NCBI GenBank assembly: GCA_027014605.1 | Contig: JALWDJ010000030.1 | Coordinates: forward strand, 1 to 64,000 | Origin: Campylobacteraceae bacterium | Lineage (GTDB): Bacteria; Campylobacterota; Campylobacteria; Campylobacterales; Sulfurovaceae | DNA: 64,000 nucleotides | Reading direction: 5' to 3' | Part shown: one piece after another, positions 2 through 50,502 of the stretch | Layout of the letters: the number at the start of each line of letters is the position of its first letter | Numbering within the stretch: the first letter of the stretch is position 1 | Notes under the pieces: model-generated | Told to the model about the DNA's origin: nothing | Database searches by the model: none | The model's input: only the letters and a program-made list of their open reading frames with translations | Position numbers and translations under genes: made by a program

Positions 2-124
2 AAAAAATGGCTGGACAGTTTTATAGACTTCAAAAAGCCACCAAAACCCCGAGATATAGAGATTTTAAAAAGATTAGAAGTAGAGATTAAAGATAGTAAT
101 TATTATAATATTTTGATAACTTAA
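2..124 (+). CDS. 3' end of an unidentified protein (partial)
   Basis: An open frame enters from the left edge and stops at TAA 122-124, giving about 40 C-terminal residues rich in Lys, Pro and Ile (starting KKWLDSFIDFKKPPK). It converges on the flippase gene 21 bases away, so it could be another surface-polysaccharide gene such as a glycosyltransferase, but that is only inference from the neighbour. The fragment is too short to assign a family. Confidence 0.4.
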   Translation, partial: KKWLDSFIDFKKPPKPRDIEILKRLEVEIKDSNYYNILIT

Positions 125-11435: not shown

Positions 11436-14015
11436 ATGAAACAGCAGTATAAATCATATCAAGAGAGTAAGGATTTTTTAATAGATTGTGAAAAAAAATA
11501 TCCAAATCTTATTAGTGTAACTAATATTGGGAAGAGTTGGGAGAATAGGGATATTTTATTAGCAACTATATCTTTAAATGTAGAGTATGCTAATTTAAAA
11601 CCAGCACTACTATATACAGGAACTATTCATGCTCGTGAGTGGATAGGAAATGAATTAGCAATAGCATTTATTGATTATCTCTTAAGAAATCATGAGAATA
11701 ATCCAGAGATATTAAAAACTCTAACATATAATACCCTATATATTGTACCATGTTTAAATCCAGATGGATTTGAGTATAGTAGAAATCATTTCTCATTTTG
11801 GAGAAAAAATAGGAGAAAAAATAGAGATGGAACTTATGGTGTTGATTTAAATAGAAACTTCTCAATAGGTTATAAAAAATCTAAAAATACAAGCTCAAAT
11901 GTATATAGTGGACCTTATCCATTTTCAGAACCAGAGACAAAAGCTATTAAAGATTTCGTTGATAGGCATGATAATATTACTATTGCACTAGATTATCACT
12001 CACAAGGAAATGTATTTTTCCCAGCTCATAAGTTTAATCATGAGATGGAGCTTGAGGGAACTGATTTAAATACACTATGTGCAAATATGAATTATCATAT
12101 TCATAAAGTAACAGGTAGAAAATATGGTATTAATAGAGGCAAACCACCAACTAAATTAATATCAGGAAGTGGTAGAGAATACTACTACTCCAAAGGAATA
12201 ATATCAGCTGTTGTTGAAGTTGGAACTAGAAATATCCCTGATTATATGCAAAATATGTCAGAGTCAATAAATGAAAATATTCCAGCACTGCTATATGCTT
12301 TAAGTGAGGCTAGAAACTATAGTTCAAATGCTCCTAAGAGAGTTGAAAATTTTCACTTAGTAGAGTTTGGTTCAAATAGTTGTAAATTGGCGTGGGATTA
12401 TCCTGAAAACCCTAAGATATATTTTGAGATATACAAAAATGTAAATAATAAAGAGGCTTGTAATGACTCCTCATTAGTTGGAATTACCTCTGGTAGAGAG
12501 TTTATAGATGAAAATTTACATAGTGGTACTATGTATTTTTATTATATAAGAGCAGTTCATAAACTATTTCAGACAAAATCTCCATTTGCACCTAAAGTTA
12601 AATTAAAAACACTACTTGAAAATAGAGAGTTTTCAAAAACAATTTTTCCTAAAAAATCTGATGTAGGATATGTAGCAGAGAAGTCTCCAGAAGCAAATGC
12701 AGGACATTTTGGAGTAAACTCTCTAAAGGTTGGAGTGAGTCAAGCTAGAGGGATTAGTTATGGTGTTATGGAATTTGATTTAAAAAGTATTCCTAGAGAT
12801 GCTATTATTTTAGATGCACAAATATCTCTCTATCCATTAAATAGAGTTTCTGCTAAGATAGAAAAATATGGTGAGTGGACAATGACTATTTTGGATAGTA
12901 AAACTATTGCAAATATAAGAGATTTTGAGCAGGTTCATAAAGCAAAAAATCTTAAGAGTGTTGGAGAGAGTATCCCCTCAGAGAGATTAACACAAGGTAT
13001 TTGGAGTAGATGGGTTTTTAATGAGTTTGAGAGAGAGCAACTTCAAAAGCAGTTAGATAAAGGAAAAGTTATCTTTAAATTAGCAGGACCTACAAAATTA
13101 CCAGTTGGAAGAGACTCTCAAATTATGGTGTTTGATTTAGGATATGGAAATCAAGGTGGAGGACTTCACTATAGACCATCTATAGATATAAAATATACTA
13201 TTCCACCTAAAGAGATAGCAATAGAGGCTTCTAATAGTATGACAATATCTGAAGATGAGATAGAAGAGGATAAACTAGCTTGTGGATTTGATAAAAATAA
13301 TGAGAAGATATATGGTTTTATCTCTTTTGATTTATCTAAACTTCCAGATATTAATGAGATAGCAATTACGGATGCATGGATAGAGATTAAAAATAGTTCT
13401 ACTGTTAAAAAAGATGTTGATATTCGTTATAATGTAGAGTTTATTGATTTAGATGAGTTTTCATATCAAGATATTAAAAATAGAGATAGAATAGAGTATA
13501 TTGGCTATGAGGTAAGTTCCGCCCAACTTAGTAAAAAGAGAGAGCATGATTTTATATTTGATTCCTACTCAATTCATGCACTTGAAGATAAAAAAAGAGA
13601 GCAACAAGAGGCAAAATTTATTATTCGTCCCACTAGTGTATTGACTAGAAAACATCTAATTCATTGGGAAAATAGCGGTAAAAATGGCGTTAAACTCAAA
13701 ATTAATTATATAGAAAAGAAGAGAACTCCTCCTAAATCACCTACAAATTTAAAAACATCTATTGAGAGAGGAGTAGTAAAACTTACATGGGATAGGGTTT
13801 TAAGTGATGATATTGTAGGCTATTATGTAGTTAGAAACCGTTGGCATATACCAAGTAACCCTTTTGACGGGGTTAAACTATATGCAGGGAAAGATAACTA
13901 TACCTATGATACTTATGGTTCAACTAAACTTGATAAGTATTATGCTGTTTTTAGCTATGATAATGTCCCTAATTATAGTAAAGGGACAAATATTAGATAT
14001 AAAGGAAAAAGATGA
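11436..14015 (+). CDS. multidomain M14 zinc carboxypeptidase with DNRLRE and Fn3-like domains
   Basis: Predicted metallocarboxypeptidase that removes C-terminal residues from peptides. The M14 domain fills about residues 1-295: zinc ligands H65 and E68 (HAREW) and H188 (DYHSQG), catalytic E261 (VVEVGTRN), so the active site is complete. Then comes an Fn3-like domain (about 300-390), a DNRLRE/CBM96-like beta domain (about 395-585), a second similar domain (about 590-760) and a final Fn3-like segment (about 765-859). Unusually, no signal peptide is present: an in-frame stop directly precedes ATG 11436 and the M14 fold starts at once. The best ribosome-binding site (AGGAGG near 11397) is about 30 bases upstream, separated by a small GTGCA/TGCAC hairpin. 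Overlaps the next gene by 4 bases. Native substrate and export route are unknown. Confidence 0.82.
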   Translation: MKQQYKSYQESKDFLIDCEKKYPNLISVTNIGKSWENRDILLATISLNVEYANLKPALLYTGTIHAREWIGNELAIAFIDYLLRNHENNPEILKTLTYNTLYIVPCLNPDGFEYSRNHFSFWRKNRRKNRDGTYGVDLNRNFSIGYKKSKNTSSNVYSGPYPFSEPETKAIKDFVDRHDNITIALDYHSQGNVFFPAHKFNHEMELEGTDLNTLCANMNYHIHKVTGRKYGINRGKPPTKLISGSGREYYYSKGIISAVVEVGTRNIPDYMQNMSESINENIPALLYALSEARNYSSNAPKRVENFHLVEFGSNSCKLAWDYPENPKIYFEIYKNVNNKEACNDSSLVGITSGREFIDENLHSGTMYFYYIRAVHKLFQTKSPFAPKVKLKTLLENREFSKTIFPKKSDVGYVAEKSPEANAGHFGVNSLKVGVSQARGISYGVMEFDLKSIPRDAIILDAQISLYPLNRVSAKIEKYGEWTMTILDSKTIANIRDFEQVHKAKNLKSVGESIPSERLTQGIWSRWVFNEFEREQLQKQLDKGKVIFKLAGPTKLPVGRDSQIMVFDLGYGNQGGGLHYRPSIDIKYTIPPKEIAIEASNSMTISEDEIEEDKLACGFDKNNEKIYGFISFDLSKLPDINEIAITDAWIEIKNSSTVKKDVDIRYNVEFIDLDEFSYQDIKNRDRIEYIGYEVSSAQLSKKREHDFIFDSYSIHALEDKKREQQEAKFIIRPTSVLTRKHLIHWENSGKNGVKLKINYIEKKRTPPKSPTNLKTSIERGVVKLTWDRVLSDDIVGYYVVRNRWHIPSNPFDGVKLYAGKDNYTYDTYGSTKLDKYYAVFSYDNVPNYSKGTNIRYKGKR

Positions 14016-48297: not shown

Positions 48298-48957
48298 TTA
48301 AACACCTTTTCTTCCTAAGACAACTCCGATAGTTTGAAGTAATATTTTAAAATCTAATAATATAGACCACTTATTTATATATAACATATCATAGGTTAAT
48401 TTTCGTCTAGCATCATAACTATTTCTCCCATAAGGGTATCTAACTTGTGCTAAACCTGTAATACCTGGTTTTACTCTATGTCTTAAGTGGTAGTTTGGAA
48501 TAACTTTTTCATATTTATTAACTAAAATATCCCACTCTGCTCTAGGACCTACTATATGCATATCTCCTTTAATAATGTTTATAAGTTGAGCTAACTCATC
48601 AATTCGTGTCTTTCTCATAAATCTACCATAAGGAAAAATTCTATTGTCATTTTCTTCTGTATATGGATTAAAATGAGCATTTTCATGCATACTTCTAAAT
48701 TTATAACATGTAAACTTTTCTCCATTTAAGCCTACTCTTGTCTGTTTAAATAGTATTTTACCTGGAGACTCCTTTTTAATTCTATATATTGTATATAATA
48801 TAATAGGAGATAAACATATAGAGAGGGATAGTGCCATACTATAATCTAAAGCTCTCTTTTGTATATAATCTATTTTAGAGTATTTCTGTTTAGCCTCTCT
48901 TTCTGCTAAAAATCCGATATATTTTTTTATTTTACTCAAACTATATAATCTGTTCAT
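48298..48957 (-). CDS. polyprenyl-phosphate sugar phosphotransferase (bacterial sugar transferase)
   Basis: Membrane-associated initiating glycosyltransferase of the PglC/WcaJ family, loading a sugar-1-phosphate on undecaprenyl phosphate. Catalytic core is present: KRALDYSMALSLSICLSPI membrane hairpin, SPGKILFKQTRVGLNG, FRSMHENA, MRKTRIDELAQLINIIKGDMHIVGPRAE, and HRVKPGITGLAQVRYPYG. The 219-residue length is that of short forms, but its C-terminal half resembles long forms (about 460 residues), so truncation by the upstream element is possible. ATG 48957 is chosen because GGAGG is six bases upstream; that site is part of the hairpin at 48964-49017. Confidence 0.85.
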   Translation of the reverse strand: MNRLYSLSKIKKYIGFLAEREAKQKYSKIDYIQKRALDYSMALSLSICLSPIILYTIYRIKKESPGKILFKQTRVGLNGEKFTCYKFRSMHENAHFNPYTEENDNRIFPYGRFMRKTRIDELAQLINIIKGDMHIVGPRAEWDILVNKYEKVIPNYHLRHRVKPGITGLAQVRYPYGRNSYDARRKLTYDMLYINKWSILLDFKILLQTIGVVLGRKGV

Positions 48958-48963
48958 CAAAAC

Positions 48964-49017
48964 CCTCCAATGATACCTCGTCCATAATCTTTGATTTGGA
49001 CGAGGAGGAATTGGAGG
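48964..49017 (-). promoter_or_regulatory. large two-part hairpin at the IscB element end, covering a ribosome-binding site
   Basis: Outer arms CCTCCAAT (48964-48971) and ATTGGAGG (49010-49017), inner arms CCTCGTCC (48976-48983) and GGACGAGG (48998-49005), both perfect, with a 4x4 internal loop and a 14-base loop. It lies 13 bases beyond the iscB stop and 7 before the sugar transferase start. On the minus strand its 3' arm carries the GGAGG that would serve as ribosome-binding site of that gene. It could be the subterminal hairpin of an IS200/IS605-like end, a terminator-like structure, or a translational control element. Confidence 0.7.
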
Positions 49018-49029
49018 AATTTGTTATTT

Positions 49030-50202
49030 TTAAATTGTTGCCATTGAGTAAGCATACCTATCTCCTTTCTGTATTGTTTTGCAATATTTGTAGTTAATAC
49101 CTTGAATTGTAGCAGCTGTTTTAGTTGTAATATTAAAATTACCACTAACCCTAACAGCTACTTTTCCAAGATAAGTTCTTATCTTTTTCCCTGTAGTTAC
49201 TACTGCTTTTACAATATCACTTGTTTGAAATTCTTTTACTATTTTAGAAGTTTTTGCTTTGGTTTTTGGAAATTCAAATCTATCCATTTTACACATTTGA
49301 CGATTTCCTCTTCCTTGGGCTTTAACCTGTAATATTTTATTTGTAACTACTTTATATTTGTAGTTATCTCCTATACACATTGCGTCATAATAATGCTCCT
49401 TTGGTAGATTTAATTCTCTTTTATTTAAGTAAGTTTGCCAACCCTCACCTGTGGTTACTTCAAAATCTTTTCCAACTTTTTTACCAAACTCTTTAAGAGA
49501 GAGATTGCCTTTGTTTTTATTACATTTTCTACAACTAAGTGTTAAATTAAAAACAGAGTTTGTTCCACCTTTTGAGCGAGGAACAATATGTTCTATCTCT
49601 TCTCCTTTATTTTTACAATAGATGCATTTATAGTTATTTTTTTTAAAGATAAACTCTCTTAATTTTCTATCTTTTAGATTACCATTTTGATACTTTACCC
49701 CATATAACTTTTTACCACTACTCATAGAACTAATATCAAATGAGACTCTCTCTATTGTGGCTTTTTTTAGTGGAATTAGCTTCGCATATTTTTTTGCAAA
49801 ATTAATAACATTTTCTGCTCTTGATTTAACACTTGGTGGTAACCAACCATTAGGTCTTGTTCTATTATTAAATCTTGGTTCTCTATATCTTGTTTTTCTA
49901 TTTCTTCTATCTCTTCTTACTGCTTTCCTTAAATCCATTGCTTTTTTAATAGCTTTTCCTTTATGTGTTATCTCTGCAAAGAAAAAGCATTTTATAGCAT
50001 CAACAATCGCTACACCTGTAACAGTTGCACCTATATCAAATTTTATCTCAAAGCTTTTTGTGCAGATTTTTTTCTCTTTTAATCTTATGGTAAATAGAAA
50101 TATTTTATGCACAACAGCTTTACCTTTTTTTAACAAAATTCTAGCCTTAGCTTCAGTAGTTGGAGCTAAGGGTTTCTTACTCTTATCCAATACAAAAACC
50201 AT
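49030..50202 (-). CDS. iscB: IscB RNA-guided nuclease (RuvC/HNH)
   Basis: IscB is the transposon-encoded relative and likely ancestor of Cas9, using an omega RNA guide. The 390-residue protein has an N-terminal PLMP-like stretch (KKPLAP at 9-14, then RILLKKGKAVV), RuvC-I with D56 (KFDIGATVTGVAIVD), an Arg-rich bridge helix (about 96-114), RuvC-II E151 (ATIERVSFD), an HNH domain with Zn pairs C193/C196 and C224/C227 and catalytic H205 (IEHIVPRSKGG), and RuvC-III H270/D273 (HYYDAMCIG). All catalytic residues appear present, so it may be active. AAAGGA stands eight bases before ATG 50202. No TnpA gene lies nearby. Confidence 0.92.
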   Translation of the reverse strand: MVFVLDKSKKPLAPTTEAKARILLKKGKAVVHKIFLFTIRLKEKKICTKSFEIKFDIGATVTGVAIVDAIKCFFFAEITHKGKAIKKAMDLRKAVRRDRRNRKTRYREPRFNNRTRPNGWLPPSVKSRAENVINFAKKYAKLIPLKKATIERVSFDISSMSSGKKLYGVKYQNGNLKDRKLREFIFKKNNYKCIYCKNKGEEIEHIVPRSKGGTNSVFNLTLSCRKCNKNKGNLSLKEFGKKVGKDFEVTTGEGWQTYLNKRELNLPKEHYYDAMCIGDNYKYKVVTNKILQVKAQGRGNRQMCKMDRFEFPKTKAKTSKIVKEFQTSDIVKAVVTTGKKIRTYLGKVAVRVSGNFNITTKTAATIQGINYKYCKTIQKGDRYAYSMATI

Positions 50203-50221
50203 TTTTAAAATCCTTTTTCAA

Positions 50222-50476
50222 ATTAACTCACTTTTCAGTGGTGACGGGCTTTTGCCTCTCTCCTCGACAATGATAAAAATGCTTGTTCGCAATGGCGAAC
50301 CGTCCTTAGGTTCACAGGGCTTTAACCAAACTTAAAGTGCCTACACAGAGCTTGAAACTGGAGAAGCATTCCAAGGTGTGATAACATTATTATCGTGGTT
50401 GGCTATCTCTAGCTATTTAGTCTGGTCAATCAAGCCTATTTAATAACTGTTAAGGTTTGGAAAAGGTTATTGACCT
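50222..50476 (-). ncRNA. omega RNA (HEARO RNA) of the IscB element
   Basis: The region directly upstream of iscB shows the structure expected for its guide-carrying RNA. On the minus strand: GGTCAAT (50469-50475) pairs with ATTGACC (50424-50430); GTTCGC pairs with GCGAAC around 50285-50300; GGC-AAAA-GCC and the small hairpin CACT-GAAA-AGTG occur near the 3' end, just before the iscB ribosome-binding site. The proximity and the AGGCAAAAGCCCGTCACC-like 3' block match what is known of HEARO RNAs. Boundaries are approximate; the guide would be at the 5' end, near 50476-50495, derived from DNA outside the element. Confidence 0.75.
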
Positions 50477-50502
50477 TTTTTACCTTTTAAAAATATAACA
50501 GA

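What the first reader, a model, noticed from the sequence alone, without database searches (positions are those of the whole stretch)
48964..50502. Solitary, apparently intact IscB element with its omega RNA
Seen: a 390-residue IscB with RuvC D56/E151/D273 and HNH H205 all present, a structured ~250-base non-coding stretch directly upstream on the same strand, and a strong hairpin downstream. Known: IscB proteins are omega-RNA-guided nucleases of IS200/IS605-like elements (HEARO RNA). Not seen: any TnpA transposase. So this is a non-autonomous or domesticated copy, short for the family, in a lineage where I do not recall IscB being studied.
Basis: partly seen in the sequence, partly recalled or inferred. 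Interest (0 to 1): 0.72.

Follow-up and report, generated by a model that had tools for sequence, protein, structure and literature searches.

The report
RNA-guided transposon docked at start codon
This is a worn, non-autonomous copy of a known kind of RNA-guided mobile element (IscB with its guide RNA), and comparing its relatives shows something unexpected: these elements insert exactly between a host gene's ribosome-binding site and its start codon, and bring a replacement ribosome-binding site with them, so the host gene can probably still be translated.

Summary
In detail: an IscB ORF (49030-50202, minus strand) with its omega RNA (HEARO, full length, E 5.6e-16, though 3 bits below Rfam's cut-off) and a strong downstream hairpin. 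"Solitary" and "intact" do not hold. The same Sulfurovum-like genome has a second copy, a fragment and an iscB-less remnant. The protein is short because 30 residues before RuvC-III, kept by its full-length relatives, are deleted, although both deleted copies evolved under purifying selection. No IS200-type TnpA was found in the genome.

An empty site in a relative fixes the element at 48958-50474, without target duplication. At 18 of 18 sites in the genus the element ends immediately before ATGAA. At 16 of 18 this is the start codon of a real gene on the same strand. The element's last bases (TTGGAGG-N5/8) form a Shine-Dalgarno sequence; the gene's own one is cut off on the far side, inside the predicted guide. 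Cyanobacterial copies (27 of 40 right ends) and some annotated plasmid copies in other phyla show the same docking.

An RTGA insertion motif was, as I recall, already reported for HEARO. I found no report of start-codon docking or the carried ribosome-binding site, but the key papers were not readable here.

The parts
48958..50474 (-). Whole IscB/HEARO element, 1517 bp (GTCAATAACC...TTGGAGGGTTTTG), no target-site duplication
   Evidence: Empty site in relative G015 (L060) and in relatives of three other insertions; alignment of copies
50252..50474 (-). omega RNA scaffold (HEARO, RF02033)
   Evidence: cmscan 79.7 bits, E 5.6e-16, model 1-211/211; the other copies score up to 98.7 bits
50475..50494 (-). 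Predicted guide = host flank directly 5' of the element; holds the target gene's native Shine-Dalgarno AAAAGG (50483-50488)
   Evidence: The empty site in G015 joins this flank to the ATG, with a 1-nt difference in an A run; that the guide is 5' of HEARO follows from published IscB work
49030..50202 (-). iscB, 390 aa; RuvC D56/E151/D273, HNH H205
49462..49464 (-). Junction of a 30-residue in-frame deletion (relatives: FTHLEPRKTPKHASIIQSARTYTLKELAKY), with ATTTT microhomology
   Evidence: Protein alignment and DNA comparison with L064
48958..49023 (-). Right-end hairpin; outer stem pairs anti-SD CCUCCAAU (49010-49017) with the SD
   Evidence: SD unpaired probability about 0 in the free RNA
48964..48968 (-). 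Element-borne Shine-Dalgarno GGAGG, 6 nt before the ATG of the target gene
   Evidence: Sequence; conserved as GGAG(G) with 5-8 nt spacing at all 18 right ends found by pattern
48953..48957 (-). Insertion motif ATGAA = start codon of the target gene (putative TAM)
   Evidence: 18 of 18 right flanks begin ATGAA
48298..48957 (-). Target gene: bacterial sugar transferase, 219 aa, intact
   Evidence: Pfam Bac_transf E 1.4e-59, residues 34-214

Best explanation
A non-autonomous IS200/IS605-like element made of an omega RNA and iscB, inserted precisely between the Shine-Dalgarno sequence and the start codon of a sugar-transferase gene. The element requires ATGA(A) directly 3' of its right end. In gene-dense genomes nearly all harmless places with that motif are start codons, so surviving copies sit at starts (selection is inferred). 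The element avoids silencing its host gene because its right end carries a ribosome-binding site (in other lineages the iscB stop codon overlaps the new start), so translation is re-created; iscB translation probably opens the hairpin that hides this site (inferred). By analogy with studied IscB systems, the omega RNA guide, copied from the host flank, lets IscB cut empty sites and favours retention of the element. This particular copy is worn: it lost a RuvC segment and has no TnpA in its genome. SHOWN: element identity, ends, empty sites, ATGAA/start-codon docking, SD position, deletion, absence of IS200-type TnpA. INFERRED: translation from the carried site, coupling, nuclease activity, mobilisation in trans by related IS605 TnpA.
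For: IscB and HEARO identity. Clean empty sites at four independent insertions, with the native SD (AAAAGG, TTGGGG, AAAGGA, GAGGGA) on one side and ATG on the other. 18 of 18 right ends at ATGAA, 16 of 18 opening ORFs of at least 96 aa, 12 of them with Pfam domains. Only 22-25 of 204 ATGAA sites in the window are starts, so 16 of 18 by chance is about 3e-13. IS605-type ends with a related hairpin in the same genus: 0 of 20 at starts. Cyanobacterial copies: 27 of 40 against a 14.7% background. Plasmid copies in other phyla dock at annotated ATGA starts; TGATG/TAATG/ATGA stop-start overlaps in five records. SD-led genes are common here (44 of 60).
Against: No expression or nuclease data. The SD is predicted to be paired (probability unpaired about 0) unless a terminating ribosome covers about 15 nt past the iscB stop. 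Start-codon bias may be only motif plus survival: ATGAA sites whose insertion point lies outside ORFs (23) are about as many as those at starts (22). Two of 18 right ends (L063, L252) open only 9- and 18-codon frames. Among plasmid records about half do not show the pattern at the annotated next gene. The shared hairpin with TnpA elements is circumstantial.
Confidence: 0.77

Rival explanations
1. Ordinary IscB element: the RTGA insertion motif is all there is. Start codons are hit only because insertions elsewhere are lost, and GGAGG at the right end is part of the transposition hairpin with no role in translation.
For: The motif explains the site; nearly all ATGAA insertion points outside ORFs are starts. 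GGAGG lies in the hairpin's outer stem and pairs with its other arm. Cyanobacterial G346 copies end GAGAGAAGAAG with only a weak SD.
Against: The GGAG(G)-to-ATG spacing stays at 5-8 nt while right-end sequences vary (GGAGGTTTTTG, GGAGATAGAGAG, GGAGATAATTTG). In five other records the iscB stop overlaps the next start instead. Without a new ribosome site the split native SD should inactivate genes such as uvrA and ubiX homologues, yet their frames persist.
Confidence: 0.25
2. Domesticated IscB: the RuvC-shortened protein with its omega RNA is kept by the host, for example as a nickase or guide-directed repressor of the adjacent gene.
For: Both 390-aa copies share the deletion and have since evolved with dN/dS about 0.25. 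The HNH histidine is kept in the window copy.
Against: The second copy has H205Y. The locus is empty in the relative G015. The window's HEARO has the lowest score of the well-preserved copies in the genus. The guide matches its own flank as expected for a mobile element. The predicted fold degrades without the segment.
Confidence: 0.08
3. Fully active autonomous or solitary intact nuclease.
For: Open frame, catalytic residues present.
Against: 30-residue deletion before RuvC-III, AF2 pTM 0.29 against 0.63 for a full-length relative with the same nine sequences, no IS200-type TnpA.
Confidence: 0.06

Closest known systems
IscB / OMEGA systems of IS200/IS605-like (ISC) elements (e.g. OgeuIscB, OrufIscB)
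   Same: Domains, HEARO-type omega RNA directly upstream, guide position 5' of the RNA, insertion without target duplication
   Different: Insertion motif ATGAA rather than the NTAAA reported for OrufIscB (PMC13180657); carried SD at the right end; 30-aa RuvC deletion in this copy
HEARO RNA elements (Weinberg et al. 2009, from memory; Goltsman et al. 2022, PMC9755519)
   Same: RF02033 RNA; I recall ATGA/GTGA as the reported integration site; TnpA rarely nearby (PMC9755519)
   Different: Start-codon identity of the motif, carried ribosome site and stop-start overlap not found in the papers readable here
IS605-type TnpA(/TnpB) elements of the same genus
   Same: Related terminal hairpin CCAAATNNNAGATTATGG in 13 of 34 genomes
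   Different: Different terminal sequence (TTGTTCAA) and 0 of 20 ends at start codons
IStrons / self-splicing group I and II introns
   Same: Functional analogy only: a mobile element that limits damage to its host gene
   Different: No splicing; damage limited by re-creating translation initiation

Membership tests
IscB (RNA-guided endonuclease family) | RRXRR/PLMP-RuvC-HNH architecture | tested here: met
   fold of relative L046 matches IscB structures 8csz, 9liq, 9k30
IscB (RNA-guided endonuclease family) | Catalytic RuvC D/E/D and HNH H | tested here: met
   D56, E151, D273, H205 invariant
IscB (RNA-guided endonuclease family) | Complete RuvC domain | tested here: not met
   30-aa deletion before RuvC-III in both copies of this genome
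IscB (RNA-guided endonuclease family) | Cognate omega RNA directly upstream | tested here: met
   HEARO full-length match E 5.6e-16, below gathering score by 3.3 bits; other copies above it
IscB (RNA-guided endonuclease family) | RNA-guided DNA cleavage next to a TAM | not testable with these tools
   Motif ATGAA inferred from flanks only
IS200/IS605 superfamily element | Precise insertion next to a fixed short motif, no target duplication, subterminal hairpins | tested here: met
   Empty sites; hairpin
IS200/IS605 superfamily element | TnpA (Y1) transposase in the element | tested here: not met
   None in the element and none of IS200 type in the genome: non-autonomous
HEARO RNA (RF02033) | Score above curated gathering threshold | tested here: not met
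   79.7 against 83 bits for this copy; five genomes of the genus have copies over the threshold

The most novel reading that the evidence does not exclude
IscB/HEARO elements in several phyla are start-codon-docking transposons: their insertion motif is the start codon itself, and they reconnect translation of the host gene, either by a carried Shine-Dalgarno sequence or by letting the host's ATG complete or overlap the iscB stop codon. This would make them near-silent RNA-guided passengers and tie their TAM specificity to the genetic code.
Probability: 0.55. Interest if true: 0.75.

Novelty: new variant of a known kind. Interest (0 to 1): 0.6.

Why it matters
IscB is regarded as the ancestor of Cas9, and its natural biology is studied much less than its use in editing. 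If its insertion motif is the start codon and the element rebuilds translation of the gene it lands on, this explains how these elements persist next to important genes (parB, uvrA and ubiX homologues), gives a reason for ATGA-type TAMs, and predicts that the natural guides are ribosome-binding sites. It is directly testable with a reporter gene.

Tried and rejected
Default Rfam scan gave no hit; the E-value scan settled it. Other RNA matches near the element (SNORA38, miRNAs) are chance matches to the hairpin or AT-rich DNA. AF2 of the window protein is too poor to use on its own (pLDDT 44.5); it is informative only against the full-length relative with the same nine sequences (68.7), and the alignment is shallow. 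First boundary call (48959-50476) was shifted by 1-2 nt: other copies and the L076 empty site show that the terminal G before ATG belongs to the element and that the left end is GTCAAT. Empty-site comparisons for L063 and L078 are too diverged to fix the junction. An attempt to find cyanobacterial right ends from shared alignment ends gave mixed breaks, and a first script failed to place iscB; a motif-based rule was used instead, with some misplacements, so 27 of 40 is approximate. Considered and set aside: that start codons are recognised as such (motif plus survival suffices).

Full report
WHAT IS THERE. The window comes from a Sulfurovum-like genome (Campylobacterota; named relatives). On the minus strand, 49030-50202 encodes a 390-residue IscB (Pfam RRXRR 5.6e-59, NCBIfam guided_IscB 305 bits). 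Directly upstream, 50474-50252 matches the HEARO RNA family over its whole length (79.7 bits, E 5.6e-16). That is 3.3 bits under Rfam's gathering score, so the default scan missed it; other copies in the genus pass the threshold, up to 98.7 bits. Downstream lies a hairpin of -33.8 kcal/mol (z -8.3).

ENDS AND COPIES. A relative (G015) has the uninterrupted locus. Empty sites for three further insertions of related elements fix the ends: the element begins GTCAAT (HEARO model position 1) and ends ...GGAGG(N)TTTTG, here 48958-50474, 1517 bp, with no target duplication. The same genome holds a second full-length copy (90% nt identity), a fragment, and a 166-bp remnant without iscB. HEARO matches occur in 5 of 60 relatives, and the protein in none of the other genomes of a 298-genome phylum sample, but iscB is annotated on Campylobacter fetus plasmids.

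START-CODON DOCKING. In iscB orientation every right flank in the genus begins ATGAA (18 of 18). At 16 of 18 it is the first codon of a co-oriented ORF of at least 96 codons, and 12 of these carry Pfam domains: sugar transferase, UbiX-like flavoprotein, TPP enzyme, LysR regulator, NnrS, chorismate mutase, UvrA, carboxypeptidase and others. In the window 22-25 of 204 ATGAA sites are starts, so 16 of 18 by chance is about 3e-13. IS605-type ends with a related hairpin in the same genomes are at starts in 0 of 20 cases. Almost all ATGAA insertion points outside ORFs are themselves starts, so a fixed motif plus loss of harmful insertions is a sufficient cause; recognition of start codons as such is not needed.

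A CARRIED RIBOSOME-BINDING SITE. The four clear empty sites show the gene's own Shine-Dalgarno on the left of the insertion (AAAAGG, TTGGGG, AAAGGA, GAGGGA) and the ATG on the right. The element therefore separates them, and the native site becomes part of the predicted guide. The element's right end supplies GGAG(G) 5-8 nt before the ATG at all 18 sites found by the pattern (the pattern itself requires TTGGAG, but the earlier unbiased listing shows the same). In the free RNA this site is paired with an upstream CCUCCAAU arm. That arm starts 13 nt after the iscB stop; covering 15 nt past the stop, as a terminating ribosome might, raises the chance that the site is free from 0 to about 0.5. Translational coupling is thus plausible but not shown.

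OTHER LINEAGES. In cyanobacterial genomes with many HEARO copies, 27 of 40 right ends located by motif abut ATGA/GTGA opening at least 60 codons, against 14.7% of such sites in the same loci. Many of these elements have no iscB. In annotated plasmids, elements end at ATGA starts in Trichormus and Deinococcus (both between parA and parB), Anabaena, Nostoc, Pseudomonas veronii and Anoxybacillus. In two Polaromonas, two Cupriavidus and the C. fetus plasmid the iscB frame runs through the right-end hairpin and its stop overlaps the next start (TGATG, TAATG or ATGA). About half of the plasmid records examined do not show the pattern at the annotated next gene.

STATE OF THIS COPY. Relatives in the genus are 419-420 aa and cyanobacterial ones 425-427 aa. 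The window copy and its sister share an in-frame deletion of 30 residues before RuvC-III, at ATTTT microhomology. With the same nine sequences AF2 gives pLDDT 68.7 and pTM 0.63 for the full-length relative, whose deleted stretch contains a confident helix, but 44.5 and 0.29 for the window protein; this is suggestive, as the alignment is shallow. The relative's model matches solved IscB structures. The sister copy also has H205Y. Yet the two have diverged with dN/dS 0.25, with fewer amino-acid changes than neutral on both branches (p about 5e-5), so the shortened protein was not simply free to decay.

MOBILITY. No IS200-type TnpA was found in the genome. The hairpin motif CCAAATNNNAGATTATGG occurs in 13 of 34 genomes of the genus with zero matches to the reversed control, at IscB ends and at the ends of IS605-type elements with TnpA (L029, L030). 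Mobilisation in trans by such TnpA proteins is likely but unproven.

PRIOR KNOWLEDGE. From memory, the paper that described HEARO reported integration at ATGA or GTGA; it, and the main IscB discovery papers, are not held. In the papers that could be read or searched I found no mention of start-codon docking or of a carried ribosome-binding site at the right end. PMC9581776 describes a Shine-Dalgarno sequence in an IsrB omega RNA, but for IsrB's own gene. OrufIscB prefers NTAAA (PMC13180657), so the motif differs between lineages. PMC9755519 reports that TnpA is seldom near HEARO nucleases, as here.

VERDICT. The finding is a real but worn, non-autonomous IscB element, a member of a known family. 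The new part is how it sits in its host: at a start codon, with a replacement ribosome-binding site.

Noticed in passing
L267 2487-2572 and L270 2487-2581 (plasmids of Trichormus and Deinococcus): In two different phyla the iscB element sits between parA and parB, ending exactly at the parB start codon.
   Followed up: partly
L274, L277, L282, L289, L290: iscB frame runs through the right-end hairpin and its stop codon overlaps the start of the next gene (TGATG, TAATG or ATGA).
   Followed up: yes
L158, L169, L171, L172, L174 (G346) and others: Many cyanobacterial HEARO elements have no iscB yet dock at ATGA starts, so the RNA and ends appear to suffice for mobility in trans.
   Followed up: partly
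G000:C6, C8, C61, C64 (e.g. L248, L249): Further copies of the terminal hairpin CCAAATNNNAGATTATGG in the window's genome without IscB, probably small non-autonomous IS605-type remnants.
   Followed up: partly
G000:C82:59-133, C22:92-171, C83:23816-23893, C8:53181-53251: A 70-80-nt repeat near contig ends (ATTTTTTTTTATAATTAATTATAGTTACAGCTAGTGG...), also in several other genomes of the genus; identity unknown.
   Followed up: no
window 11436-14015: M14 carboxypeptidase-like gene whose apparent homologue in G003 (L254) carries an IscB element at its start codon; the window's gene appears to be free of it.
   Followed up: no
L061 (second copy in the same genome): HNH catalytic histidine replaced by tyrosine (EEIEYIIP), besides the shared 30-residue deletion.
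   Followed up: yes
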